From Peptococcaceae bacterium BICA1-7 (lineage in GTDB: Bacteria > Bacillota > Desulfotomaculia > Desulfotomaculales > Desulfocucumaceae), in the NCBI GenBank assembly GCA_000802095.1, contig JUEB01000028.1, positions 1-60,859 on the forward strand: 60,859 nucleotides of DNA. The letters run 5' to 3'. The first letter of the stretch is position 1. The number at the start of each line of letters is the position of its first letter. Shown in pieces: positions 1 through 60,859 of this stretch. Made by a program: the position numbers and the translations under genes. The notes under the pieces are model-generated. The model was not told where the DNA came from. It worked only from the letters and a program-made list of their open reading frames with translations, and made no database searches.

Positions 1-331
<331 letters not shown>

Positions 332-3042: not shown

Positions 3043-3332
3043 AAAGGGAACACAGCCTTCTCAAGGAATGTTCCCGATATAAACCCGGTGAAGGGGTAAA
3101 AGTAGTCCGTCGTAACCTTTTAGAGAGCCGGTGGTGGTGTGAACCGGTAGGAACGGCAGGATGAATTCGGCTCCCTGGAGGGGGTTTGCTGAAAGCAAAG
3201 TAGGCAAACACGGGCAGTTCCCGTTAACACAGATTAAAGAGGACCGGATTTTTTCCGGTCAAAAAGGGTGGCACCGCGGGAGATAATCCTCTCGTCCCTG
3301 TAATATTTCAGGGGACGGGGGGGTTTTTATTT
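3043..3332 (+). promoter_or_regulatory. T-box riboswitch leader with terminator
   Basis: A tRNA-sensing transcription-attenuation leader. The diagnostic T-box GGGTGGCACCGCGGG is at 3266-3280. The Stem I features are present: AGTA at about 3108, AGAGAGCCGG, the GGTG apical segment and GAACCGG, then GATGAA before the specifier region. The terminator is CGTCCCTG...CAGGGGACG followed by a G and T run (3293-3332); the T-box can pair into the competing antiterminator. It controls the aminotransferase-serA pair downstream. The triplet directly after GAA (3163-3167) is TTC (Phe), and one base later it is TCG (Ser). The downstream genes favour serine, but the codon is not settled from sequence alone. 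Confidence 0.93.
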
Positions 3333-48546: not shown

Positions 48547-49856
48547 TGAATAAAAGTAAAAGACGTGAACTATCCCTTGACCTTACCCTGGAGGCCGCCT
48601 TTCTGCCGGTGGCGGCCGCTGCCACTGAGCAGACGGCGCTGGCCTTTGGCCTGGAAAAGAAAGAAGCTCTGCAGCTTACCCTGGCGGTTGAAGAGGTATT
48701 AAACCACCTTGTGGAGGTGGGCAGCAGCGGTGAGCATGTATCACTGAAATTGGCGGACGGGCTCTATTACATGGAGGCAAGTATAGACTTTCCCCTAAAA
48801 GAGCTTAACCTGAGGGCCTTTAACCTGACCTCGGGAGTATCTCTGGAAGATGAGTCCCAATTGAGCGAGATGGGACTTCTCATTGCCTCCCGCATGGTGG
48901 ACCGCCTGCAGCTGTCTTTGAAGAATAATGTCATGCGGCTGGGACTTTACAAGGAAAAATACTACCCTGAGGCCGGCGGGTTAAAAGATATACCGGCGGA
49001 GGATACTGATCAGCCGGCCATCCTCACCCCCGGTCCGGAGGACTTAAAGCTCTTCTGCCGGGGGGTGACGGCAACCCAGCCAGGCTATTATTATCCCTCT
49101 TTTTTCAGCCGGCCCGGCAAATTTGTGGATATGGTAAAAAGCGGGGATTACAGCGCCCTGCTGGCGTATAACGGCAAGAAACAGGTGCTGGGCGGCATAG
49201 CCTGGCGTCAGGAATATGAAAAGACTATAGAGTGCTTTGGGCCGTATCTGTTCAGAGACAGTAAGGAAGTGGCCGGGGCGCTGCTGGATGGGTTTTTGGA
49301 GCAGGTGGGCCGTACCAGGGCCCCCGGTGTTTTAAGCCGCTGGCTGGCCCCGGGAACGGCCATAGAAAAACATTTTGAAAGTCTGGGCGCTGCGGATTTT
49401 TATTCTTCGGGGGCCGGCCCGGTGCAAAGAGCGGCCCATTACCGGCAGCTCTGTGAAGACACAGGCAGCAGGGTATGGGCTCACACCGACCTGGCCGGTT
49501 TTCTAAAGGAAGAATACCGGAGGCTTTTTTTACCCCGGGAGGTAAGGGAAGTAAAGGATATGGGGGAGCATACCGGGGCCTATTCGGTCTTTAGCTGCCA
49601 GTTCGACCAGGAGGAGGTAACCTTAATCCCTCTGGCGGCAGGGGCAGATGCCGGGGTAAACCTGGCCCGGCACCTTACCCTTTTTGCCGGGGAGGGAATA
49701 AAGAATATATACTTTGAGCTGGACCTGGGGGAGGAGTGGCACGCCCTATTGACACCGGTCCTGGTCCGTAACGGCTTCCGGCCCTGCTATATACTGCCCC
49801 ATGCCGGAAAGGGCGACCTGGTATTGTTCCAGTGCCGGGCAGGTGAAAAGAAATGA
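48546..49856 (+). CDS. Anti-sigma-like ATPase domain fused to an acetyltransferase-like region
   Basis: 436 residues. The N-terminal 140 residues look like the RsbW/SpoIIAB-type ATPase: LTLAVEEVLNHLVEVGSSGEH is the N box, and SEMGLLIASRMVDRLQLSLKNN stands where the G2 region should be. The remaining 290 residues (LKLFCRGVTATQPGYYYPSFF, and later NIYFELDLGEEWHALLTPVLVRNGF) resemble GNAT folds and parallel the C-terminal half of the GNAT gene two places on. It overlaps both neighbours by one to four bases inside a tight operon. A binding or regulatory role for the operon product is possible; I cannot name it. Confidence 0.7.
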   Translation: MNKSKRRELSLDLTLEAAFLPVAAAATEQTALAFGLEKKEALQLTLAVEEVLNHLVEVGSSGEHVSLKLADGLYYMEASIDFPLKELNLRAFNLTSGVSLEDESQLSEMGLLIASRMVDRLQLSLKNNVMRLGLYKEKYYPEAGGLKDIPAEDTDQPAILTPGPEDLKLFCRGVTATQPGYYYPSFFSRPGKFVDMVKSGDYSALLAYNGKKQVLGGIAWRQEYEKTIECFGPYLFRDSKEVAGALLDGFLEQVGRTRAPGVLSRWLAPGTAIEKHFESLGAADFYSSGAGPVQRAAHYRQLCEDTGSRVWAHTDLAGFLKEEYRRLFLPREVREVKDMGEHTGAYSVFSCQFDQEEVTLIPLAAGADAGVNLARHLTLFAGEGIKNIYFELDLGEEWHALLTPVLVRNGFRPCYILPHAGKGDLVLFQCRAGEKK

Positions 49857-50956
49857 TAGCCAGACTGGAGGAACTGGTCCCCTCATATATAAAAAGCTTT
49901 GACGCCTATATACCCAGCAAGCCCGACCCCGAGCTGCAAAAGCTTTTTGGCTGTGACCGCCTTTACCGGCTGAACAATAATGAAAACCCCCTGGGACCTT
50001 CCCCGGCGGCCCAGGAGATTTTGCAGCGTTTTTCCCCTCCCCGGGCGGCAGTCTATCCCAGCGGCGACTCCTACTATCTGAGGGAAAGGCTGGCCGCAAC
50101 ACACGGCCTGCACCCGGACCAGATACTGGTGGGCAACGGCGCCAACGAGGTAATCACTTTTGTCATTAAGGCCTTTTGCGAGGCCGGGGACAACATAATC
50201 ACCGCCGACAAGACCTTTGCCGTATACGAGTGGGTGGCCATTTTTTCAGGCTATGAGGCCAGGCTGACGCCCCTTAAAGACTTTGCCTTTGATGATCAGG
50301 CCATGCTGGAGAGGATAGACAGCCGCACCAAAATACTATTTGTCTGCAACCCCAATAACCCCACCGGCACCTACTGGAACAGGGACAAGCTGTGCCGCTT
50401 CCTGGACAGGGTGGACGGCAGGCAGATTGTGGTGGTGGATGAGGCCTATTTTGAATATGTGGAAAAGGAAGATTTTCCCGACGGAATTTCGTTGATTGAC
50501 CGCTATCCCAACCTGGTGGTGTTTCGCACCTTCTCCAAAATGTACGGACTGGCGGGGCTGCGTATAGGCTACCTGGCCGGACAGCTGGATGTGGTCAATA
50601 TTATCCGCCGGGCCTGCGTGGTGTATTCGGTAAATACCCTGGCCCAGGAGGCGGCCCTGCTGGCCCTGGAGGATAAAGACCATATAAATCGCACCAGACG
50701 GCTGATGAGAGAGGAAAAAGGCTACCTGCGCCGGGAGCTGACCCGCCTGGGGCTGCCTTTTGTAATGCACGAAGGCAACTATGTAATGATAAAGCTGCCC
50801 ATGAGCGACACCCTGGCCTACCGCAGGCTGATGGGCCGGGGAGTGATGGTGCGCACCATGACCGGCTTCAGGTTCCCCAACTACATAAGGATAAGCATAG
50901 CCCGGCATGAGGCCATGGAGGCCCTGGTTAAAGGCCTGGAGGCCATTTTACTTTAG
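49853..50956 (+). CDS. Histidinol-phosphate aminotransferase-like PLP enzyme
   Basis: 367 residues, class I/II aminotransferase closest to HisC. LNNNENPLGPSP begins the PLP domain, VGNGANEVITF binds phosphate, CNPNNPTGTY and VVVDEAYFEYV flank the PLP ring site, and Lys229 in FRTFSKMYGLAGLRIGY is the Schiff-base lysine. The C-terminus FRFPNYIRISI carries the carboxylate-binding arginine. No other his gene is present, so the enzyme probably works on a compound linked to the molybdenum hydroxylase of the same operon rather than in histidine synthesis. Its ATG overlaps the preceding stop by four bases. Confidence 0.88.
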   Translation: MIARLEELVPSYIKSFDAYIPSKPDPELQKLFGCDRLYRLNNNENPLGPSPAAQEILQRFSPPRAAVYPSGDSYYLRERLAATHGLHPDQILVGNGANEVITFVIKAFCEAGDNIITADKTFAVYEWVAIFSGYEARLTPLKDFAFDDQAMLERIDSRTKILFVCNPNNPTGTYWNRDKLCRFLDRVDGRQIVVVDEAYFEYVEKEDFPDGISLIDRYPNLVVFRTFSKMYGLAGLRIGYLAGQLDVVNIIRRACVVYSVNTLAQEAALLALEDKDHINRTRRLMREEKGYLRRELTRLGLPFVMHEGNYVMIKLPMSDTLAYRRLMGRGVMVRTMTGFRFPNYIRISIARHEAMEALVKGLEAILL

Positions 50957-50975
50957 TATAGGAGGAGTTGTTTGT

Positions 50976-51992
50976 ATGACTACCCCAGAAAACAGCAAGA
51001 AGGATCTTACTTTGGAAATAAGGATGATGCAGCCTGAAGACGCCGCCGGGGTGGTGGAGCTATACAGGGCTGTTTACGGGGACCACTACCCGGTGAAAAC
51101 GGTATATGACACAAATGCCATAATGGATCTACAGGACAAAGGAGATATGATCCGCATCATTGCCCGGGCGGACGGAAAGGTGGTGGGCCAGGCAGCTTTT
51201 TACAGGTCGGCCTGCCCCAATCCCTCACTGTATGAATTGGGACAGGGTATAGTCCTCCCGGCCTACCGGAATATGAAAATATTGGAGCGCTGTATGGCTT
51301 ATGGCCATGATGAGGTATGTCCCCGGCTTAAAATAAATCAATTATGGGGAGAGGCGGTATGTAACCATGTTTTTGTGCAAAGAACATGCCAGCTGTTGAA
51401 TTATGTGGAAACCGGCATAGAGCTTGACTTGATGCCCGCCTCCTCCTATGAAAAAGAAAAGAGCAGCAGCGGCAGGGTGTCCACCCTAGTGGCCTTCAAA
51501 AGGACTACGCCTAATGACCGGCCTGTGTATTTGCCGCTGGTTTACCGGGAAGTGCTGAGCTACATTTATCCGGCCTTTAATGAGGACCAGAGTTTCCTTC
51601 CAGCTGAGAGCGGGCTGCCGGATACTTCCACAGAGGGAAAAACAGAGATTTACCAGGGGGCCGGTGTGGCCCGCTTTACCATAATGCAGGCGGGCGGGGA
51701 CTTGGAGGATTTCCTCAAAAAACAGGAGGCCCAAGCCCTGGCCAAAGGCTGCCGCATACTGCAGGTTTATCTGGACCTTTCTTCTCCTTTTATTGACGGG
51801 GCGGTAGACACCGCCAGAAAGCTGCAATACTTTTTTGGAGCAGCCCTGCCCGGATGGTTTGGCGGCGACGGTCTAATTATGCAAAAGTGCCTTGATGAGC
51901 CCAACTGGGAGGGTATAAACCTGTACGCGGAACGGTCACGCCGTCTGCTTGAAATGATCAGGGAGGACAGGGAAACGGTGCTGAAAGGCTAG
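50976..51992 (+). CDS. GNAT family N-acetyltransferase-like protein
   Basis: 338 residues from ATG 50976, behind AGGAGG; a longer frame from 50907 overlaps the aminotransferase and has no site. The first 160 residues are a GNAT fold (EIRMMQPEDAAGVVELYRAVYGDHY; YELGQGIVLPAYRNMKILERCMAYG is the acetyl-CoA loop, though QGIVLPAYRNMKI deviates from the usual Q/RxxGxG/A). The last 140 residues form a second, GNAT-related domain (GGDLEDFLKKQEAQALAKGC) also present in the anti-sigma-like gene 48546. It may acetylate the aminated product. It is the next-to-last gene of the operon. Confidence 0.8.
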   Translation: MTTPENSKKDLTLEIRMMQPEDAAGVVELYRAVYGDHYPVKTVYDTNAIMDLQDKGDMIRIIARADGKVVGQAAFYRSACPNPSLYELGQGIVLPAYRNMKILERCMAYGHDEVCPRLKINQLWGEAVCNHVFVQRTCQLLNYVETGIELDLMPASSYEKEKSSSGRVSTLVAFKRTTPNDRPVYLPLVYREVLSYIYPAFNEDQSFLPAESGLPDTSTEGKTEIYQGAGVARFTIMQAGGDLEDFLKKQEAQALAKGCRILQVYLDLSSPFIDGAVDTARKLQYFFGAALPGWFGGDGLIMQKCLDEPNWEGINLYAERSRRLLEMIREDRETVLKG

Positions 51993-52029
51993 CCAGAAGA
52001 ACTATGGCTGATTATTTGGGGAGTAGTAT

Positions 52030-53397
52030 ATGAAACCTCTATTTGCCAGGCCGGCGGATATGGGGACGGGCCCGGTGCCCCGGGTAATACTGTCCCTGGC
52101 TATACCTGCCATGGCCAACATGTTTTTTCAAAACCTTTATGCCCTGGTGGACACCATGTTTATCTCCTGGCTGGGAACCGCCGCCCTGGCGGCCCAGGCC
52201 CTGTCCATACCTGTTTTTTACCTGGCCCTGTCCGCCTGCAAGGGCATTCAGGTGGGGGCGGCCACAATAATGAGCCATGCCCGGGGCCGGGGAGATATGG
52301 AAAGGGCCTCGGCCACAGGCATGGCCGCCCTGCCGCTGCTGCTTTTGTGCCTTTCTCCCGCCGTGCTTCTTCTACTGCCCCAGTTTAACCAGGACTTCTT
52401 TTACCTTATGGGGGCCAGGGGGGATGTGCTGGACCTGGCCTATAATTATTCAGCCTGGATGGTGGCGGGCTTTCCCTTTATGGCCTATGTATTTGCGGCA
52501 GAGGCCATTTATTTCAGCAATGGCGATACACTGACCCCCATGAAGGGCCAGCTGCTGGGAAATGGGTTAAACATTTTGCTGGACCCGGTTTTAATATTTT
52601 CCCTGCACCTTGGCATAGCCGGGGCTTCCCTGGCCACCCTGCTGGGACAGCTGGCCTGTGCCCTCTATCTGGCAGGGGGGCTAAAGAAAGGCGGCCTCAT
52701 CCGGCCGGCTCTGAAAATTAAAAAAAAGCACCTCCCTTTGTGGAAAGCCATCTCCGGCCCCGGGGCATTTGTGGCCGTTACTTTTCTGGTCAGCCCCCTG
52801 GGATTATCACTGGTTAACCTGGTGCTGGCCTCCTTTGGCCCGGCTGCCGTGGGGGCCTGGAATATAATGTCCCGCCTGGAAATGCTGGGACAGCTGCCCC
52901 TTTTGGGGATGGGAGGCGCGCTGGTGCCCTTTATAGCCTTTAACTACGGGCGGCAAAACTTTGACCGCATCAGAGAGGGGGTGCGGGTTTGCCTTCTGGC
53001 GTCATATGTCATGGTGCTGCCGGTAATGGCTCTCTTCATTTTTATGCCGCACTACCTGGTTATTCCCTTTCAGGCCGACGCCGAGGTGGGCAGACTGGCT
53101 GCTTACGCCATTAGCGCCGCCGCCCTGGGACACCTGTTTATTCCCCTGGAAATGGCCATGTATGGTGCCGCCCAGGGTCTGAAAAAATCCGGGTACCCGC
53201 TGGTGGCCATAGGCATACGCATACTGCTGGCCCGCTATCCCCTGGCCCTTTTGTTTGCGGTAACCTGGGGAGTAAAAGGAGTATTCTGGAGCCAGCCGGC
53301 ATCCATGCTGATATCTGGAGCCCTTTCCGCCGCTTTCATCTGGCTCCTTTTAAAAAATTCCGGGAGAAAATTGAAAAATAGTAGAAATTTGGCCTGA
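52030..53397 (+). CDS. MATE family exporter of the hydroxylase operon
   Basis: 455 residues, about twelve membrane helices. The N-terminus (GPVPRVILSLAIPAMANMFFQNLYALVDTMFISWLGTAAL) has the MATE layout, and the first half carries ACKGIQVGAATIMSHARGRGD. It differs from the MATE at 40762, so two distinct pumps are encoded. It starts 37 bases after the GNAT gene with GGGGAG upstream, and is probably the last gene of the molybdenum hydroxylase operon. This suggests that the operon product, or a toxic intermediate, is exported. Confidence 0.93.
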   Translation: MKPLFARPADMGTGPVPRVILSLAIPAMANMFFQNLYALVDTMFISWLGTAALAAQALSIPVFYLALSACKGIQVGAATIMSHARGRGDMERASATGMAALPLLLLCLSPAVLLLLPQFNQDFFYLMGARGDVLDLAYNYSAWMVAGFPFMAYVFAAEAIYFSNGDTLTPMKGQLLGNGLNILLDPVLIFSLHLGIAGASLATLLGQLACALYLAGGLKKGGLIRPALKIKKKHLPLWKAISGPGAFVAVTFLVSPLGLSLVNLVLASFGPAAVGAWNIMSRLEMLGQLPLLGMGGALVPFIAFNYGRQNFDRIREGVRVCLLASYVMVLPVMALFIFMPHYLVIPFQADAEVGRLAAYAISAAALGHLFIPLEMAMYGAAQGLKKSGYPLVAIGIRILLARYPLALLFAVTWGVKGVFWSQPASMLISGALSAAFIWLLLKNSGRKLKNSRNLA

Positions 53398-53850: not shown

Positions 53851-53911
53851 TTGACAGGGAAGTGGGAAATTTTTTATAATAATCATACCGACTGGTCGGT
53901 ATGATTATTAT
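53851..53911 (+). promoter_or_regulatory. Promoter overlapped by the TetR operator
   Basis: Perfect TTGACA (53851-53856), an 18-base spacer and perfect TATAAT (53875-53880). Bases 53876-53911 are a 36-base palindrome: a 17-base arm ATAATAATCATACCGAC, then TG, then its perfect inverse. The core ACCGACTGGTCGGT is typical of TetR-family operators and begins inside the -10 box, so a bound repressor would block RNA polymerase. It stands just before the TetR gene and its operon. Confidence 0.93.
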
Positions 53912-53935
53912 TTATTAAAACAAGCAGGGAGATTG

Positions 53936-54532
53936 GTGAGTTATTTGAACACGCGGGAACAGATATTGCGCTCGGCTGTGCAGCTGTTTGGGACAAAGGG
54001 CTACCAGGCCACCTCCATTCAGGACATTTGCGAGCTGGCGGGGGTTAGCAAGGGAGCTGTCTTTCACTACTTTAACAATAAAAATGAGCTGTTATTTGAA
54101 ATTCACGAAGAGATAATTGATATTCTTATTACTCAGTGCGAAAGCATATTTAAAAATGACAGCCTCGTCCCTTCTCAAAAATTAAGGGAGCTGGTAGACG
54201 TAATGGTGGGCCTGATGGCGGATTACAGGCCTTACATAGTGGTCCTCTTCCAGGAGTATATAAACATACAGGAACACAAATTTGACCTTGTCAAGGCCAG
54301 GCGTGACAGGTGTGAAGAGATTGTCGCCGCTGTTATAAAGCAGGGGATATTGAGCGGTGAATTCAGGCAGGACCTGGAGTTTTCCATACTGGCCAAGCTT
54401 TTTTTCGGTATTTGCAACTGGACATATATTTGGTTAAATCCTGAAGGGCCTCTTACACCGCAGCAAATAGCGGAGAATATCTGGAAGGTGTTCGTGGGAG
54501 GCTTAAAGGCTGCTATAACGAAAGGAGAATGA
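53936..54532 (+). CDS. TetR family transcriptional repressor
   Basis: 198 residues. The N-terminal helix-turn-helix is typical: REQILRSAVQLFGTKGYQAT, SIQDICELAGVSKGAVFHYF, NNKNELLFEI. The C-terminal helices resemble the FadR/AcrR-type ligand-binding fold often induced by acyl-CoA or hydrophobic acids. GTG 53936 is chosen; TTG 53933 and GTG 53936 are both close to GGGAG at 53927. The gene is directly after its own palindromic operator, so it should repress itself and the four genes that follow. Its stop overlaps the next reading frame by four bases. Confidence 0.9.
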   Translation: MSYLNTREQILRSAVQLFGTKGYQATSIQDICELAGVSKGAVFHYFNNKNELLFEIHEEIIDILITQCESIFKNDSLVPSQKLRELVDVMVGLMADYRPYIVVLFQEYINIQEHKFDLVKARRDRCEEIVAAVIKQGILSGEFRQDLEFSILAKLFFGICNWTYIWLNPEGPLTPQQIAENIWKVFVGGLKAAITKGE

Positions 54533-54534
54533 AA

Positions 54535-56007
54535 ATGAGGACAAAGGCGCAGTACATTGAGAGGTTAGGAAAGATGAACAGTAATCTCTACAGCAACGGA
54601 CAAAAGATCGGCAGGCTGGATGAGCGGCAGGAGGGAGCCATCAATGTTATGGGACTGACCTTTGACGCCGCCTGGGATCCCGCAAGCCGAGAGCTTTGCA
54701 CGGCGACATCCCATATCACCGGGGAAACCATCAACCGCTTTAATCATATTCACCAGAACACCGGGGACCTGCACAAGAAGCAAGATATGACCCGATTTTT
54801 GTGCAACAAGGTCGGGCAGTGCATCCAACGCTGTATGGGCATTGATGCAGCCAACGCGGTAAATGCTGTTTCTTTCGAGGCACAGAAGTCTCCCAAGGCA
54901 AAAACCGCATACCATGACAACTGGTTGAAGTGGCTGGAGCGCTTTCAAACCGAAGACCTGGTAGCCAGCTGCGCCCAGACCGACGTCAAGGGCGAGCGCC
55001 TGAAGCGGCCGTCTGAGCAGACCGACCCTGACATGTATGTGCGGGTGGTGGAAGAGCGGAGCGACGGGATAATAGTTCGCGGCTCCAAGGTCCACATCTC
55101 GGAGGCCTCCATTTCCGATGAGATCCTGGTAGTGCCCAACCGGGCACTTAAAAAGGGTGAAGAGGCCTATGCGCTGTGCTTCGCAATTCCTTCGGACTAT
55201 GAAGGCGTAAAGCAGGTTGTTCATTTCCACAACTTCAGAAAGCGCGAACATTATCAAAGGCCGGCTGATTATGGATACACGGACTCGTATATCATCTTTG
55301 ACGACTGCTTTGTTCCCTGGGACCGGGTATTCCTGTGCGGGGAAACACAGCACGGCGGAGTAGCAGCCCTGCTGTTCGCTCTTTTTCACCGTCATTCCTA
55401 CTCCGGCTGCAAGCCTGCCCTGCTGGACTTTGTTATCGGTCTGGCCAGCCTGGCTGCTGAAATAAACGGCATTGAAAAGACCCCGCATGTTCGTGAGATG
55501 TTGTCCAAGCTGATCATGACCGGTGAGCTTGGATACGCAGCCGGCTATACGGCATCCGACTTCGGCAAGCCCGAAGTTTATGTGCCTGGCCTGGGCTCTG
55601 TGCCGTATGGCCCAGGCAGCTGTATCCCGAACTCTATCTATTGCAACGTAGGAAGGTGTCTGACCGGTGAGGCAGTGTTCCACGAGCAGGAAATACTGTG
55701 TAACATTGCAGGTGGTCTGCCCGCCACCTTCCCTTACGAAAAAGACCTGACCAACCCCGAAACCAAAGCTCTGCTGGAGAAATACCTCATGCGGAACCCC
55801 AAAATACCCATCGAGGAACAAATCAAGTTCTGGCTGACCTTTATTGACTTCAATCTTTCCGGCTCTTCCGGCTCAATACTGTACGGCTCGTACCACGGAG
55901 GCGGCTCTCCGATCATGGAGCAGATCGCCATCACCTCCCAGTACGACCTGGAGTCTAAGAAGGACATCGTCAGGGCTATAGCCGGAATGGCGCCCAGACA
56001 GAAATAG
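54535..56007 (+). CDS. 4-hydroxybutyryl-CoA dehydratase-type enzyme (HpaB/AbfD family)
   Basis: 490 residues, the length of AbfD, in the 4-hydroxyphenylacetate 3-hydroxylase family. Features that set AbfD apart from the flavin monooxygenases are all visible: cluster ligands Cys96 and Cys100 in GQCIQRC (AbfD Cys99/Cys103), His285 and Cys292 in FHRHSYSGCK (AbfD His292/Cys299), and Tyr289 and Lys293. This points to an oxygen-sensitive [4Fe-4S]/FAD enzyme that dehydrates a 4-hydroxyacyl-CoA to an enoyl-CoA, or isomerises vinylacetyl-CoA. GAAAGGAG precedes ATG 54535. It is the first enzyme gene after tetR. The natural substrate could be a substituted 4-hydroxyacyl-CoA. Confidence 0.88.
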   Translation: MRTKAQYIERLGKMNSNLYSNGQKIGRLDERQEGAINVMGLTFDAAWDPASRELCTATSHITGETINRFNHIHQNTGDLHKKQDMTRFLCNKVGQCIQRCMGIDAANAVNAVSFEAQKSPKAKTAYHDNWLKWLERFQTEDLVASCAQTDVKGERLKRPSEQTDPDMYVRVVEERSDGIIVRGSKVHISEASISDEILVVPNRALKKGEEAYALCFAIPSDYEGVKQVVHFHNFRKREHYQRPADYGYTDSYIIFDDCFVPWDRVFLCGETQHGGVAALLFALFHRHSYSGCKPALLDFVIGLASLAAEINGIEKTPHVREMLSKLIMTGELGYAAGYTASDFGKPEVYVPGLGSVPYGPGSCIPNSIYCNVGRCLTGEAVFHEQEILCNIAGGLPATFPYEKDLTNPETKALLEKYLMRNPKIPIEEQIKFWLTFIDFNLSGSSGSILYGSYHGGGSPIMEQIAITSQYDLESKKDIVRAIAGMAPRQK

Positions 56008-56051
56008 AGGTCTGAAGTTTAAAAGATCCATATTATAGAGGAGGAAAACTT

Positions 56052-57038
56052 ATGACCAAGTCAGTCAATTCGGTGCTGGGACCTGTTTCCCCGGAAAATT
56101 TCGGAGTAACTCTCATGCATGAACACCTGGTTTTCGGTTATCCAGGCTGGCAGTATGACTCAGCCGCACCTTCCTATGACCGGGAAAAAGCTGCCGAAGC
56201 TTGCTGTGCTATGATTGGCGAGGCGATGACATATGGCTTGAAAACCGTAGTGGATGCAACACCCAATGATGGGCAGAGAGACCCGGAATTATACAAAATA
56301 GTAGCGGAAAAAACCGGAATAAACATTATCTGTTCCACCGGGCTTTATACCGAGGAAGAGGGTGCGCCGGCCTACTTTAAATTTCGCAGGATGCTTACCG
56401 GAGGGTCCCCGGCGATAACAAACGAAGTGTATGAAACCTTCATGAAGGATATCACACAGGGGATAGGCGATACAGGCGTAAAGGCCGGCGTTATTAAGGT
56501 GGCCACCAGCAGGGGGGAAATCACCCAGTATGAGGGGATGGTTTTAGAGGCAGCGGTTATGGCTCACAAAGAAACAGGTGTCCCCATTATTACCCATACC
56601 GAAGGCGGAACCATGGGGCCTCAGCAGGCAGACTTTTTACTCGGACAGGGCGCCGATCCCAACCGACTCATGATCGGGCATATGTGCGGGAATACCGATA
56701 TTAACTACAGCATTGAAGTCCTGAAAAAGGGTGTTTATGCGTCCTATGACAGGTTTGGCCTGGATTTATTCATGCCTGACGTTAAGCGCCAGGAAACAGT
56801 GATAGGGCTCATTAAGCAGGGCTTTGAGAAGCAATTAATGCTCTCCCACGATTTCATCTGTTTTTGGCTGGGGCGTGAATTGCCGCTTTCAGAGCCCATT
56901 ATACCTCTGGTGGCCAACTGGAATTTGACCAATATATTCAAAAACATAATTCCGGCTCTGAAAAAGGCCAATATCACAGATGACCAGATAAAAACCTTAA
57001 TGGTGGAAAATCCCAAAAGGCTTTTTTCAGCCACTTAA
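56052..57038 (+). CDS. Phosphotriesterase-family hydrolase (probable lactonase)
   Basis: 328 residues, the binuclear metal phosphotriesterase/PHP-like lactonase family of the amidohydrolase superfamily. Metal ligands: His23 and His25 (MHEHL), carbamylated Lys149 (VIKVATS), His182 (ITHTEGG), His210 (MIGHMCGN) and Asp267 (LSHDFIC). In members of this family, the lactone ring is the usual natural substrate and organophosphate cleavage is incidental. Between a 4-hydroxyacyl-CoA dehydratase and an acyl-CoA synthetase, opening of a gamma-lactone to a 4-hydroxy acid is a natural reading; I infer it from context. GAGGAGG lies before ATG 56052. Confidence 0.88.
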   Translation: MTKSVNSVLGPVSPENFGVTLMHEHLVFGYPGWQYDSAAPSYDREKAAEACCAMIGEAMTYGLKTVVDATPNDGQRDPELYKIVAEKTGINIICSTGLYTEEEGAPAYFKFRRMLTGGSPAITNEVYETFMKDITQGIGDTGVKAGVIKVATSRGEITQYEGMVLEAAVMAHKETGVPIITHTEGGTMGPQQADFLLGQGADPNRLMIGHMCGNTDINYSIEVLKKGVYASYDRFGLDLFMPDVKRQETVIGLIKQGFEKQLMLSHDFICFWLGRELPLSEPIIPLVANWNLTNIFKNIIPALKKANITDDQIKTLMVENPKRLFSAT

Positions 57039-57116
57039 TAGCAATGACATTATATTTTTGTCAGTTTATTCCATGGGTAGAATTTTGTCATTCCAAAACA
57101 GAGGGGGCCAGAGGTT

Positions 57117-58718
57117 ATGTCTGATAGTGTCAATAAAGTGACAAGGACTTTTTATCCACTGGAGGAACTTGACTCGTTTAAGGACGGGAGACGTCTGTAT
57201 TTTGACAGTATAGCAGAAATGTTTACGGTAAGGGCGCAGGAAATACCGGATAAAGCACACGTTCTGTATTATGACCAGGTAATTACATATGCCCAGACCA
57301 ATGAGCGCTCTAACAGAGTGGCCAACTATCTAAAGGAAATGGGAGTTAAGAAGGGCGATGTGATTTCGGTGATGGTGCTTAATTCGCCCGAGGTTTACTA
57401 TACTATGTTCGGGGCGCAAAAGCTGGGCGCCATTGCCGGAGGCGTAAATTATATGCTGAAGGGCCCTGAAATAGCCCACGTCCTGGATGATTCAAAGCCA
57501 AAGGTAGCCTTTGTCAGCAGCGAATTTATGAAGGATTTTGCAGCCGGCTATGAGATGGCCTCACACAGGCCCGTGGTGGTGGAGGTTTATACAGGAATAG
57601 ACCACGGCGCCAATATAGCGGAGCAGAAGCTTTCGGACATTCTGGCCAAATATCCGGCGGATGAGGCTCTTATTCCACTAACTCCCGAGGATCCCTTCCT
57701 TCTGCTGTATTCGTCCGGCACCACCGGGAGGCCCAAGGGCATCCTTCTTTCCAACAGGGGACAGCTTTCCATATGCAGGGAAATGGTTACTTCGGGACTG
57801 TTGACTTCCGGTGATACAATGATGATTGTACTTCCCATGTTCCATACAAACCCGCTGTGCGTATGGACCTATCCCATGGCTTATGTTGGGTCCACTTTGT
57901 GTATCAGGAAGATGTTTTCACCCCAGGATTTCTGGCCGTCCATCTTAAATTACGGCATCACCATTATAATGGGTGTTCCCACCATGTATAACTATGTGTG
58001 TAATGCTGTGGACCCCGGTTCCCTGGACAAATCAAAGCTAAAGCTAAAATATGCCTTCTGCGGCGCCGCGCCGCTGCCTGTTGAGTTAATCAGGGCATTT
58101 AAGGAGAAATTCGAAGTAACCGTTATAGAGGGCTACGGGCTGACAGAGGCCACAGGGGTATCCACCTCCAGTTTCGGTGTTCCACTGAAATGGGGATCCA
58201 TAGGTATACCCTACCCGGAACAGCAGATTGAGATAATGGACGATGAGAACAATATATTGCCTGTGGGCGAAAAGGGAGAAATCTGTATCAGGGGCGATGC
58301 TGTTATGTCAGGGTACCTGAACAAGCCCGAGGCCACCGCCGAAACCGTCAGGGACGGATGGCTGCACACCGGAGATATGGGTTATATGGATGAGGAAGGC
58401 TACCTATATGTGGCAGGCAGGAAAAAAGAAATGATCAACAGGGGCGGCGAAAATATATACCCGAGGGAAATAGAGGCTGTACTTGAAACCCACCCGGCCA
58501 TTGACCAGGTGGCTGTGGTAGGAGTTCAGGACCCTTCTCTGGGTGAAAGGGTAAAGGCCTGCATTATCCTGAGGGAGCAGGGGTCGCTAAACGCCGAAGA
58601 TGTAAAGGCCTTCCTAAAGGACAAAATTGCAAAATATAAAATCCCTGAATTTGTTGAATTCAGGACTTCGTTCCCGCTAAACCCCACAGGAAAGATACTT
58701 AAGGGAGAGTTGAAGTAA
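57117..58718 (+). CDS. AMP-dependent acyl-CoA synthetase
   Basis: 533 residues, an ANL-superfamily ligase that activates a carboxylic acid with ATP and CoA. P-loop LLLYSSGTTGRPKGI (near 200), GYGLTEATG (near 340), the hinge region YLYVAGRKKEMINRGGENIY (near 430) and the catalytic lysine in NPTGKILKGEL at the C-terminus (near 525). It belongs with long/medium-chain or aromatic CoA ligases; the substrate is not fixed by sequence. It could form the CoA ester needed by the AbfD-type enzyme. It begins 78 bases after the lactonase gene with GGCCAGAGG upstream, same strand, no terminator between. Confidence 0.92.
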   Translation: MSDSVNKVTRTFYPLEELDSFKDGRRLYFDSIAEMFTVRAQEIPDKAHVLYYDQVITYAQTNERSNRVANYLKEMGVKKGDVISVMVLNSPEVYYTMFGAQKLGAIAGGVNYMLKGPEIAHVLDDSKPKVAFVSSEFMKDFAAGYEMASHRPVVVEVYTGIDHGANIAEQKLSDILAKYPADEALIPLTPEDPFLLLYSSGTTGRPKGILLSNRGQLSICREMVTSGLLTSGDTMMIVLPMFHTNPLCVWTYPMAYVGSTLCIRKMFSPQDFWPSILNYGITIIMGVPTMYNYVCNAVDPGSLDKSKLKLKYAFCGAAPLPVELIRAFKEKFEVTVIEGYGLTEATGVSTSSFGVPLKWGSIGIPYPEQQIEIMDDENNILPVGEKGEICIRGDAVMSGYLNKPEATAETVRDGWLHTGDMGYMDEEGYLYVAGRKKEMINRGGENIYPREIEAVLETHPAIDQVAVVGVQDPSLGERVKACIILREQGSLNAEDVKAFLKDKIAKYKIPEFVEFRTSFPLNPTGKILKGELK

Positions 58719-58745
58719 AAGTAGGCCAGTGTCAACGGACAAGAG

Positions 58746-59798
58746 GTGATTATCATAAAGGCATTGTTTTTGAGGGACAATAAGGTGCTGTCTCTGGAAG
58801 ATACAGAGAAGCCGGTAATAAAGGAGCCGGGTGACGTTATCGTAAAGGTCACGGCCTCGGCCATTTGCGGCAGTGACATTCACTTCTGGCAGGGAGGGCT
58901 TCCGTGTATACCGGACTTTATCCTCGGACACGAGTTTGTGGGCACAATTGAGGAGGCCGGCAGCGGAGTAAAGCTGTTTAAGCCCGGTGACCGGGTTTCG
59001 GTTCCCGCCAACCCGTACTGCGGGGTTTGCCCCAACTGCAAAGAGGGCAAGGTATATATTTGCGAGATGAGAAGCATGTTTGGCGGAGGCAAGCTTCTGG
59101 GAGATCTGCCCGGGGCCCAGGCCGAGTACGTCCGGGTTCCGTCAGCTGATAACTGCCTGGCGCCAATACCAGATACAGTAAGCGACAGGGCGGCCCTTCT
59201 GGTGGGAGATGTGCTGTCCACAGGATACTTTGCCGCTCTTAACGGCAACCTTCGGCCCGGGGATGATATAGCAATCTTCGGGGCGGGCCCGGTGGGGCTG
59301 TGCGCCCTTGCCTGTGCCCTTCTATTCAGCCCGGCCCGGGTTTTCCTGGTGGATGTGGAGGACTACCGCCTGGAGGTGGGACTCAAAATGGGGGCCACCC
59401 ATATAATAAACACCGGCAGCAGCCGGGCGGCCAAAGAAATAAAGAGGTTGACCGGCGGCCGGGGAGTGGACCTGGTTATTGAGGCGGTTGGCCTTCCGGC
59501 CACCTTTTGTGATGCTGTATCCAGCGCAGCCCCCGGGGGGGTGGTTTCACTGGTGGGAATCGGACCCCCTGTCATGGAATTCCCCATGGCCAAGTTCTTT
59601 TTTAAGAACCTTACTTTAAAGGCCGGGCTGGTGCCGCTGACCAATATGTCCAGGCTGATGAAGCTGATAGAGGCAGGACGGCTGGATGTCACACCCCTGT
59701 TTACCCACCGGATCAAGTTAAGCAACATACTGGAGGGCTACAGGATTTTCAAGGATAAAGAGGATAATTGCATAAAGGTGCTGGTGGTTCCTGACTGA
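58746..59798 (+). CDS. Zinc-dependent alcohol dehydrogenase
   Basis: 350 residues, medium-chain dehydrogenase family. The catalytic zinc site is CGSDIHFW with GHEFVG; the structural zinc uses the cysteines of CGVCPNCKEGKVYIC; NAD(P) binds at IFGAGPVGLCAL and the acidic FLVDVEDYR suggests NAD. The start is unclear. GTG 58746 is the nearest standard start, but AGAGGTGAT (58742-58750), a near-perfect ribosome binding site, overlaps it. The family N-terminus MKALFL would begin at ATA 58755. It is the last gene of the TetR operon, and could oxidise a hydroxy acid, diol or alcohol to feed the pathway. Confidence 0.9.
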   Translation: MIIIKALFLRDNKVLSLEDTEKPVIKEPGDVIVKVTASAICGSDIHFWQGGLPCIPDFILGHEFVGTIEEAGSGVKLFKPGDRVSVPANPYCGVCPNCKEGKVYICEMRSMFGGGKLLGDLPGAQAEYVRVPSADNCLAPIPDTVSDRAALLVGDVLSTGYFAALNGNLRPGDDIAIFGAGPVGLCALACALLFSPARVFLVDVEDYRLEVGLKMGATHIINTGSSRAAKEIKRLTGGRGVDLVIEAVGLPATFCDAVSSAAPGGVVSLVGIGPPVMEFPMAKFFFKNLTLKAGLVPLTNMSRLMKLIEAGRLDVTPLFTHRIKLSNILEGYRIFKDKEDNCIKVLVVPD

Positions 59799-59837: not shown

Positions 59838-59882
59838 CAGGGATTCCCACTATTTGAGGTGGGAATCCCTGTCTGTATTTTA
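59838..59882 (+). terminator. Terminator of the TetR operon
   Basis: CAGGGATTCCCAC TATTTGAG GTGGGAATCCCTG then TCTGTATTTTAT: a 13-base perfect stem. The GGGATTC unit matches the hairpins at 619 and 33743. Confidence 0.92.
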
Positions 59883-60642: not shown

Positions 60643-60859
60643 CTAACAGACTTTTTTTAAAGGGTCAGCTAATAATTGCTGCAGTTTTTCCTGGGCAATT
60701 ACAGCGTGTTTGGGGAGTTTTATTGATTCAGTCACAAGTTTGGCCAAAGGTTCTCCATCCCACAGAGGAGGAAGGAAAGGGCGTCGTTTTTGTAACATGG
60801 CGTAAGCAACCTTGATAAACTTGTTACCTACGGCAATATAGGCCGCATGAGTATGCTTT
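60643..60859 (-). CDS. IS110-like transposase, C-terminal part (runs off the window)
   Basis: The minus strand reads from the window edge: HAAYIAVGNKFIKVAYAMLQ, then RPFLPP, then a charged C-terminus ending near KKVC. The VAxAMLxxxxPF-like segment resembles the C-terminal part of IS110/IS1111 transposases, which use a DEDD catalytic core and lack terminal inverted repeats. The 5' part lies outside, so intactness is unknown. The stop lies near 60643; it depends on the length of a T run at about 60653-60660 and could fall some 20 bases lower. Confidence 0.55.
   Translation of the reverse strand, partial: KHTHAAYIAVGNKFIKVAYAMLQKRRPFLPPLWDGEPLAKLVTESIKLPKHAVIAQEKLQQLLADPLKKVC

What the first reader, a model, noticed from the sequence alone, without database searches (positions are those of the whole stretch)
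53851..59798. TetR-controlled operon: AbfD-type dehydratase, lactonase, CoA ligase and alcohol dehydrogenase
Seen: one palindrome-controlled promoter, tetR, then four enzyme genes on one strand with short gaps and a single terminator. Known: AbfD makes crotonyl-CoA from 4-hydroxybutyryl-CoA; phosphotriesterase-family proteins are often lactonases; ANL ligases form CoA esters. Inference: lactone to 4-hydroxy acid, to CoA ester, to enoyl-CoA, with the dehydrogenase feeding or draining an alcohol/aldehyde. I know of no described pathway with exactly this set under one repressor, so this is the best candidate for an undescribed catabolic system.
Basis: partly seen in the sequence, partly recalled or inferred. 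Interest (0 to 1): 0.8.

Follow-up and report, generated by a model that had tools for sequence, protein, structure and literature searches.

The report
Repressor-controlled lactone-to-acyl-CoA operon
A five-gene operon of an anaerobic bacterium appears to open a lactone ring, attach coenzyme A and pass the product to a flavin-iron-sulfur enzyme that resembles 4-hydroxybutyryl-CoA dehydratase but belongs to a separate, untested branch lacking some of its active-site residues.

Summary
A perfect sigma-70-type promoter overlaps a 17-bp-arm palindrome, followed by tetR, an AbfD/HpaB-fold flavoprotein, a phosphotriesterase-family protein, an acyl-CoA ligase, a zinc dehydrogenase and a strong terminator. 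The phosphotriesterase keeps the metal ligands and key substrate residues of a phosphotriesterase-like lactonase (PLL). Such genes lie directly beside an acyl-CoA ligase in 14 of 18 loci, which supports lactone to hydroxy acid to CoA ester. The "AbfD" is not the textbook enzyme. Its clade (85 of 85 rows) keeps the four cluster ligands, Tyr296 and Lys300 but has Glu455 to Gly, Glu257 to Asp and Gln189 to Ile. A canonical copy lies elsewhere in the same genome. The clade occurs in at least three phyla of anaerobes, often near beta-oxidation genes. The TetR operator resembles that of Thermus PfmR and recurs upstream of related tetR genes. The full five-gene set was not found in the other loci examined. 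TetR+AbfD-like, AbfD-like+ligase and PLL+ligase pairs recur; the dehydrogenase link does not. Best reading: assimilation of a lactone or hydroxy acid through an untested AbfD-like subfamily; substrate unknown. New variant of a known kind.

The parts
53851..53880 (+). promoter, TTGACA-18-TATAAT
   Evidence: 12 of 12 consensus match
53876..53911 (.). operator palindrome, arms of 17 bp, gap 2, overlapping the -10 box
   Evidence: same core upstream of related tetR genes in other genomes
53933..54532 (+). tetR, PfmR-like repressor (start TTG 53933 or GTG 53936)
   Evidence: Pfam TetR_N 1.8e-17 and TetR_C_24 1.7e-26; best solved relative 3vpr
54529..56007 (+). AbfD-like [4Fe-4S]/FAD acyl-CoA enzyme, HpaB fold, E455G/E257D/Q189I clade
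56052..57038 (+). phosphotriesterase-like lactonase (PLL)
   Evidence: Pfam PTE 6.5e-63; 49% identity to 3f4c with six metal ligands and Tyr99/Arg230 kept
57117..58718 (+). AMP-forming acyl-CoA ligase
   Evidence: Pfam AMP-binding 1.5e-86; same subfamily beside AbfD-like or PLL genes in some other loci
58746..59798 (+). zinc-dependent medium-chain dehydrogenase
   Evidence: Pfam ADH_N 4.2e-29, ADH_zinc_N 2.4e-25
59838..59871 (+). intrinsic terminator
   Evidence: 14-pair stem, T-rich tail

Best explanation
A PfmR-type TetR represses its own operon by covering the -10 box and is released by a pathway intermediate, probably a CoA ester (inferred). The PLL hydrolyses a lactone to a hydroxy acid (inferred from conserved residues). 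The ligase forms the hydroxyacyl-CoA (inferred). The AbfD-like enzyme, using its [4Fe-4S] cluster and FAD, eliminates water from, or isomerises, that CoA ester to a 2-enoyl-CoA that enters beta-oxidation (inferred). Because the side chains at AbfD positions 189, 257 and 455 are all changed in the same way, its substrate is probably not 4-hydroxybutyryl-CoA but a related ester with a bulkier or more hydrophobic group, such as a gamma-substituted 4-hydroxyacyl-CoA. The dehydrogenase may interconvert the hydroxy acid and its oxo form. Operon architecture, family assignments, residue changes and operator conservation are shown; substrate, reaction and effector are not.
For: Operon and operator. 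PLL residues H23, H25, K145, H178, H206, D266, Y99, E101, R230, W271 (3f4c numbering) kept; the related GkaP hydrolyses gamma- and delta-lactones (PMC4338136, passages). PLL gene directly beside a same-strand acyl-CoA ligase in 14 of 18 loci, against 20 such ligases at E<=1e-60 in the whole 4.75-Mb genome. AbfD-like+ligase+PLL in L050 and AbfD-like+ligase+PLL+ligase in the related L013 and L020. In one other genome (G452) the same ligase subfamily pairs with PLL at one locus (L210) and with AbfD-like at another (L227). A PLL 69% identical lies about 5 kb from a canonical AbfD gene in G049. Of 79 AbfD-like loci, 42 have at least one beta-oxidation-type gene and 52 such a gene or an acyl-CoA ligase within 5 kb, although 35 loci have less than 5 kb on one side; singly, 22 have enoyl-CoA hydratase, 22 3-hydroxyacyl-CoA dehydrogenase, 24 acyl-CoA dehydrogenase and 26 a ligase. 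Cluster ligands kept in 85 of 85 rows.
Against: Glu455 and Glu257 of AbfD are replaced, so the dehydration itself may be lost. PLL enzymes are promiscuous (esterase, weak phosphotriesterase; PMC4338136, passages). Only 3 of 79 AbfD-like loci have a PLL within 5 kb, so most members of the clade seem to work without a lactonase. In 4 of 18 loci the PLL is not directly beside a ligase, and the window's ligase subfamily also occurs beside neither gene (L224, L225, L226, L228). Ligase specificity cannot be read from sequence. The dehydrogenase is not linked elsewhere. The operon itself contains no hydratase or thiolase.
Confidence: 0.5

Rival explanations
1. The operon degrades gamma-butyrolactone or 4-hydroxybutyrate with an ordinary 4-hydroxybutyryl-CoA dehydratase.
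For: 34-35% identity and the same fold as 1u8v; cluster ligands, Tyr296 and Lys300 kept; a 69% identical PLL lies near a canonical AbfD in G049.
Against: Outside the AbfD clade (support 100); Glu455 to Gly, Glu257 to Asp and Gln189 to Ile in 85 of 85 rows; the genome already has a canonical AbfD at C33:265763.
Confidence: 0.12
2. The AbfD-like enzyme is a general beta-oxidation accessory (3,2-enoyl-CoA isomerase or a redox enzyme) for branched, aromatic or terpenoid acids; the PLL acts as an esterase or on an unrelated lactone, and the operon is a general acid-activation unit.
For: 76 of 79 clade loci have no PLL within 5 kb, while 52 have a beta-oxidation-type gene or ligase; 26 of 79 have a sigma-54 activator nearby; C2 sister genes in L140 and L154 lie near genes that look, by eye, like branched-chain-type ABC transporters.
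Against: PLL and acyl-CoA ligase are adjacent in 14 of 18 loci, which argues for hydrolysis followed by activation of the same molecule.
Confidence: 0.24
3. The genes were brought together by chance insertion into a tetR-abfD-like pair and do not form one pathway; the dehydrogenase in particular is a bystander.
For: In G041 and G073 tetR and abfD-like stand as a pair without the other three genes; the ligase subfamily was found at E<=1e-140 in 1 of 113 genomes of the order, the window's own, so the insert is probably acquired; the closest dehydrogenase (71%) lies 0.5 Mb from abfD-like in G041.
Against: Three other loci (two of them close relatives) hold AbfD-like with PLL and ligase; the ligase subfamily is found beside AbfD-like genes in L040, L041, L057 and beside PLL in L210.
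Confidence: 0.14

Closest known systems
[quoted passage not shown] Nitrosopumilus 6vjr)
   Same: Fold (Z 34-35 over about 425 residues), four cluster ligands, Tyr296, Lys300
   Different: Separate clade; Glu455 to Gly, Glu257 to Asp, Gln189 to Ile
Phosphotriesterase-like lactonases of Geobacillus (3f4c; GkaP)
   Same: 49% identity to 3f4c; metal ligands, Tyr99, Glu101, Arg230, Trp271
   Different: Tyr100 to Thr and Pro275 to Glu, both in the leaving-group site of GkaP, so a different lactone is likely
PfmR (Thermus thermophilus TTHB023)
   Same: Operator core TACCGAC..GGT; TetR repressing its own operon of fatty-acid-type genes (PMC7022988, passages); best solved relative is 3vpr, which I recall to be PfmR
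   Different: Different target genes; effector untested
Levulinate pathway LvaABCDE of Pseudomonas putida
   Same: CoA ligase and oxidoreductase feeding a 4-hydroxyacyl-CoA into beta-oxidation (PMC6692424, passages)
   Different: That pathway goes through a phosphorylated intermediate; here an AbfD-like enzyme and a lactonase would do the job
gamma-Butyrobetaine utilisation (bbu) of Emergencia timonensis
   Same: Flavin enzyme eliminating a C4 group from a 4-substituted butyryl-CoA (PMC8364193, passages)
   Different: BbuA is an acyl-CoA dehydrogenase homologue, about 10% identical to 4-hydroxybutyryl-CoA dehydratase

Membership tests
4-hydroxybutyryl-CoA dehydratase (AbfD) | Cluster ligands Cys99, Cys103, His292, Cys299 (roles recalled) | tested here: met
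   kept in 85 of 85 clade rows, window included
4-hydroxybutyryl-CoA dehydratase (AbfD) | Active-site Tyr296 and Lys300 (roles recalled) | tested here: met
   85 of 85
4-hydroxybutyryl-CoA dehydratase (AbfD) | Active-site Glu455 and Glu257 (roles recalled) | tested here: not met
   Gly and Asp in 85 of 85; both Glu present in 9 of 9 rows of the tree clade with 1u8v and 6vjr
4-hydroxybutyryl-CoA dehydratase (AbfD) | Falls in the clade of characterised members | tested here: not met
   window clade plus C2 separated with SH-aLRT 100 (quick tree of 81 rows; the program warns that long branches meet there)
4-hydroxybutyryl-CoA dehydratase (AbfD) | Converts 4-hydroxybutyryl-CoA to crotonyl-CoA | not testable with these tools
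   needs enzyme assay
HpaB-type flavin monooxygenase | NCBIfam equivalog score | tested here: not met
   TIGR02309 134.7 bits, cut-off 480.2
Phosphotriesterase-like lactonase | Binuclear metal ligands HxH, Lys, His, His, Asp (assignment recalled) | tested here: met
   all six aligned residues kept
Phosphotriesterase-like lactonase | Conserved Tyr99 (lactone carbonyl) and Arg230 | tested here: met
Phosphotriesterase-like lactonase | Lactone hydrolysis | not testable with these tools
   needs assay
TetR / PfmR-like regulator | TetR_N and TetR_C_24 domains, PfmR-type operator | tested here: met
   none of the 24 NCBIfam models listed reaches its cut-off
ANL acyl-CoA ligase | AMP-binding and AMP-binding_C domains | tested here: met
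   none of the 25 NCBIfam models shown (of 110) reaches its cut-off, the best (PRK06187) with 465 of 476 bits; substrate not testable
Zinc medium-chain dehydrogenase | ADH_N and ADH_zinc_N domains | tested here: met
   none of the 23 NCBIfam models listed reaches its cut-off

The most novel reading that the evidence does not exclude
The E455G clade is a new radical dehydratase for gamma-substituted 4-hydroxyacyl-CoAs, so that this operon is an anaerobic route from gamma-lactones or levulinate-type acids (for example gamma-valerolactone, via 4-hydroxyvaleryl-CoA) to beta-oxidation, replacing the phosphorylation route of Pseudomonas.
Probability: 0.2. Interest if true: 0.75.

Novelty: new variant of a known kind. 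Interest (0 to 1): 0.5.

Why it matters
4-Hydroxybutyryl-CoA dehydratase genes are used to predict 4-hydroxybutyrate carbon-fixation cycles from genomes (PMC12794621, passages). A large sister clade, found in at least three phyla of anaerobes, keeps the cofactor site but has lost active-site acids, so such annotation can mislead. The operon gives that clade a testable substrate class (lactones and their hydroxy acids) and a ready inducible system. The conserved PLL-acyl-CoA ligase pair also suggests a catabolic role for phosphotriesterase-like lactonases, which are often discussed as quorum-quenching or pesticide-degrading enzymes.

Tried and rejected
Considered and rejected: HpaB hydroxylase (cluster ligands kept; TIGR02309 far below cut-off); canonical AbfD; recent duplication of the genome's two AbfD-like genes (86% identical, but the C33 copy groups with G041 and Desulfotruncus rows, support 93). 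Five-gene synteny in relatives: none in 79 loci; of the 80 named loci L061 was dropped there because no ORF at 60% identity was called.

Led nowhere: literature on the residue roles of AbfD (the 2004 structure paper is not held; none of the 20 papers listed of 172 holds both terms); papers joining AbfD with lactonase (1, off the subject), with Desulfosporosinus (2; passing mentions only), HpaB name with syntrophs (0); gamma-valerolactone and anaerobes (listing only). The clade's description in print was thus sought only in this open-licence library. The benzene paper PMC13101534 (passages) uses AbfD only as an analogy. The model has pLDDT below 50 at 337-380 and 444-470, which holds the Glu455 position, so no pocket argument was made from it.

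Caveats: set C3 was defined partly by Glu455 and Gln189, which is circular; the tree clade is the independent check (Glu455 9 of 9, Glu257 9 of 9, Gln189 8 of 9). The column headed E257 was in fact position 277; the right column is. Gly at 455 also occurs in a deeper branch with Tyr296 to Cys (own C26 copy). In one search the loci L172, L173, L174 were scanned at the wrong end of tetR; one search repeats them. Operator matches in G049 (12 of 18) and G015 (11 of 18) are at background. Searches scored only part of the candidates per genome (up to 3 and up to 12), so ligase counts there are lower bounds. Phylum labels come from record titles; several MAGs are named only Deltaproteobacteria or Proteobacteria, and the tree program's Myxococcota label for them was not relied on.
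Full report
Observation. The five ORFs, their order and strand are as described. The promoter is a 12 of 12 match and is overlapped at its -10 box by a palindrome with 17-bp arms, 53876-53911. The core 18-mer is expected 0.02 times in the window at up to 3 mismatches. No terminator-like site lies in the gaps between genes (weak ones lie inside genes), and a 14-pair terminator follows the last gene. The window is one whole contig of a 4.75-Mb genome in 33 contigs, so what lies beyond 60859 is not known.

Regulator. The TetR has TetR_N and TetR_C_24 domains; its closest solved relative is 3vpr, which I recall to be Thermus PfmR. The published PfmR site TACCGACCGNTNGGTN (PMC7022988, passages read) matches the core ATACCGACTGGTCGGTAT well. 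The exact core occurs once in the window's genome; the next best site (2 mismatches) lies beside a paralogous tetR (47%), between it and a divergent run of carboxyltransferase, CoA ligase and carboxyltransferase genes. In six other genomes searched, the sites with 0, 1 and 2 mismatches, in G016, G041 and G073, all lie upstream of the tetR relative. Sites with 3 mismatches are about as common as the reversed-pattern control, though one (G068 C19:299651) also lies just before a tetR relative. Of eleven other tetR relatives whose upstream 400 bases were scored, nine have a best match of 14 to 18 of 18; in 3000 random slices 14 or more is reached in 0.43%. G049 (12) and G015 (11) are at background. 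So the palindrome is very probably the operator of this TetR, inferred from conservation.

AbfD-like protein. Pfam gives HpaB_N and HpaB. The best solved relatives are 4-hydroxybutyryl-CoA dehydratases 1u8v and 6vjr, and an AlphaFold2 model from 28 rows (mean pLDDT 79.9) gives the same two at Z 34.4 and 34.9, above HpaB at 30. An alignment of 113 rows puts 85 in the window's clade (58% identity or more, window included). All 85 keep Cys99, Cys103, His292, Cys299, Tyr296 and Lys300, and all 85 have Gln189 to Ile, Glu257 to Asp and Glu455 to Gly. The roles of these residues are recalled; the structure paper is not held. In an 81-row tree (part of the 113 rows, plus a HpaB) this clade and its sister C2 (10 rows, Ala in 8 and Gly in 2 at 455) are split with support 100 from the clade that holds 1u8v and 6vjr, in which Glu455 and Glu257 are present in 9 of 9 rows. 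The genome has five family members: two of this clade (86% identical to each other), one canonical (C33:265763), two distant. Record titles place the clade in Bacillota, Desulfobacterota and Chloroflexota (Dehalococcoidia), plus MAGs named only Deltaproteobacteria or Proteobacteria.

Neighbourhoods. Of 80 named loci, 79 could be counted: within 5 kb, 26 have an acyl-CoA ligase, 22 an enoyl-CoA hydratase, 22 a 3-hydroxyacyl-CoA dehydrogenase, 24 an acyl-CoA dehydrogenase, 26 a sigma-54 activator, 13 a TetR, 3 a PLL, 0 a dehydrogenase at 40% identity or more, and 0 the full five-gene set. 42 have at least one beta-oxidation-type gene and 52 such a gene or a ligase; 35 loci have less than 5 kb on one side, so these are lower bounds. 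TetR directly before AbfD-like recurs in G041 (73%) and G073 (63%), there without the other three genes. In G049 the related tetR (47%), a PLL (69%), several CoA ligases and a canonical AbfD (82% to the window genome's canonical copy) lie within 12 kb. In G016 the exact operator, tetR, sigma-54 activator, DUF362, 3-hydroxyacyl-CoA dehydrogenase, CoA ligase and a C2 enzyme share 9 kb. This regulator type is thus repeatedly found near AbfD-family acyl-CoA genes in the order.

Lactonase and ligase. The PTE protein is 49% identical to the Geobacillus lactonase 3f4c and keeps six metal ligands plus Tyr99, Glu101, Arg230 and Trp271; Tyr100 and Pro275 differ. GkaP, of the same type, has proficient activity on gamma- and delta-lactones, and its Tyr99 mutants have less of it (PMC4338136, passages). 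PLL relatives are rare: 5 of 113 genomes of the order (E 1e-40), 10 of 398 of the phylum (E 1e-80), own genome counted in both. In 18 loci (window, 3 named, 14 from those searches), the PLL has a same-strand acyl-CoA ligase within 310 bp in 14, at 1.1 kb in one (L216), and none in three (L145, L209, L217); some loci are close relatives. The window's ligase subfamily (57% or more) was not found in the other 112 genomes of the order. It lies beside AbfD-like in L040, L041, L057, 4.4 kb from it in L079, beside PLL in L210, and beside neither in L224, L225, L226, L228. This argues that the three enzymes handle one substrate family.

Dehydrogenase. A 71% relative exists in G041, half a megabase from its AbfD-like gene and with none of the reference pathway genes within 8 kb. 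Its place in the pathway is a guess.

Mechanism. Best reading: lactone to hydroxy acid (PLL), to CoA ester (ligase), to enoyl-CoA (AbfD-like radical chemistry), then beta-oxidation elsewhere, with induction by a CoA ester as in another TetR system, MbdR (3-methylbenzoyl-CoA inducer; PMC4424350, passages). Every reaction is inferred. Loss of Glu455 may mean a different leaving group or position, or isomerisation only.

Novelty. The parts are of known kinds; the combination and the clade were not found described in the searches listed under Tried and rejected, which cover open-licence papers only. I file it as a new variant of a known kind.

Noticed in passing
G000 contig C33:492954-494426 (L002, L006): A second AbfD-like gene, 86% identical, stands without tetR, lactonase or ligase in the 17 kb fetched.
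   Followed up: partly
G000 contig C1:264217-268526 (L149): Paralogous PfmR-like tetR (47%) with a 2-mismatch operator, divergent from two carboxyltransferases and a CoA ligase: a probable second unit of related regulation.
   Followed up: partly
L138, L142, L143, L144, L210-L215: Phosphotriesterase-like lactonase next to an AMP-forming acyl-CoA ligase is a recurrent gene pair in Bacillota (14 of 18 loci).
   Followed up: yes
L064, L066, L068; G007 C17:14848-17714 (L105), G005 C159:6036-8951 (L107): Tandem divergent AbfD-like genes in Desulfobacterota and in two genomes of the window's family; possibly a two-subunit enzyme.
   Followed up: no
L026 14807-16111, L139, L195, L196: A DUF362 protein recurs in AbfD-like/CoA-ligase regions (12 of 79 loci within 5 kb); role unknown.
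   Followed up: no
window 1-331, 496-608, 3079-3302: 3' end of 23S rRNA, 5S rRNA and a T-box leader at the start of the contig.
   Followed up: no
window 60643-60858, minus strand: Open frame of 71 aa running off the contig end, no Pfam hit; the contig may end in a repeated element.
   Followed up: partly
window 49853-53397: Upstream of the operon: class I/II aminotransferase, an unassigned protein of 361 aa and a MatE-family transporter.
   Followed up: no
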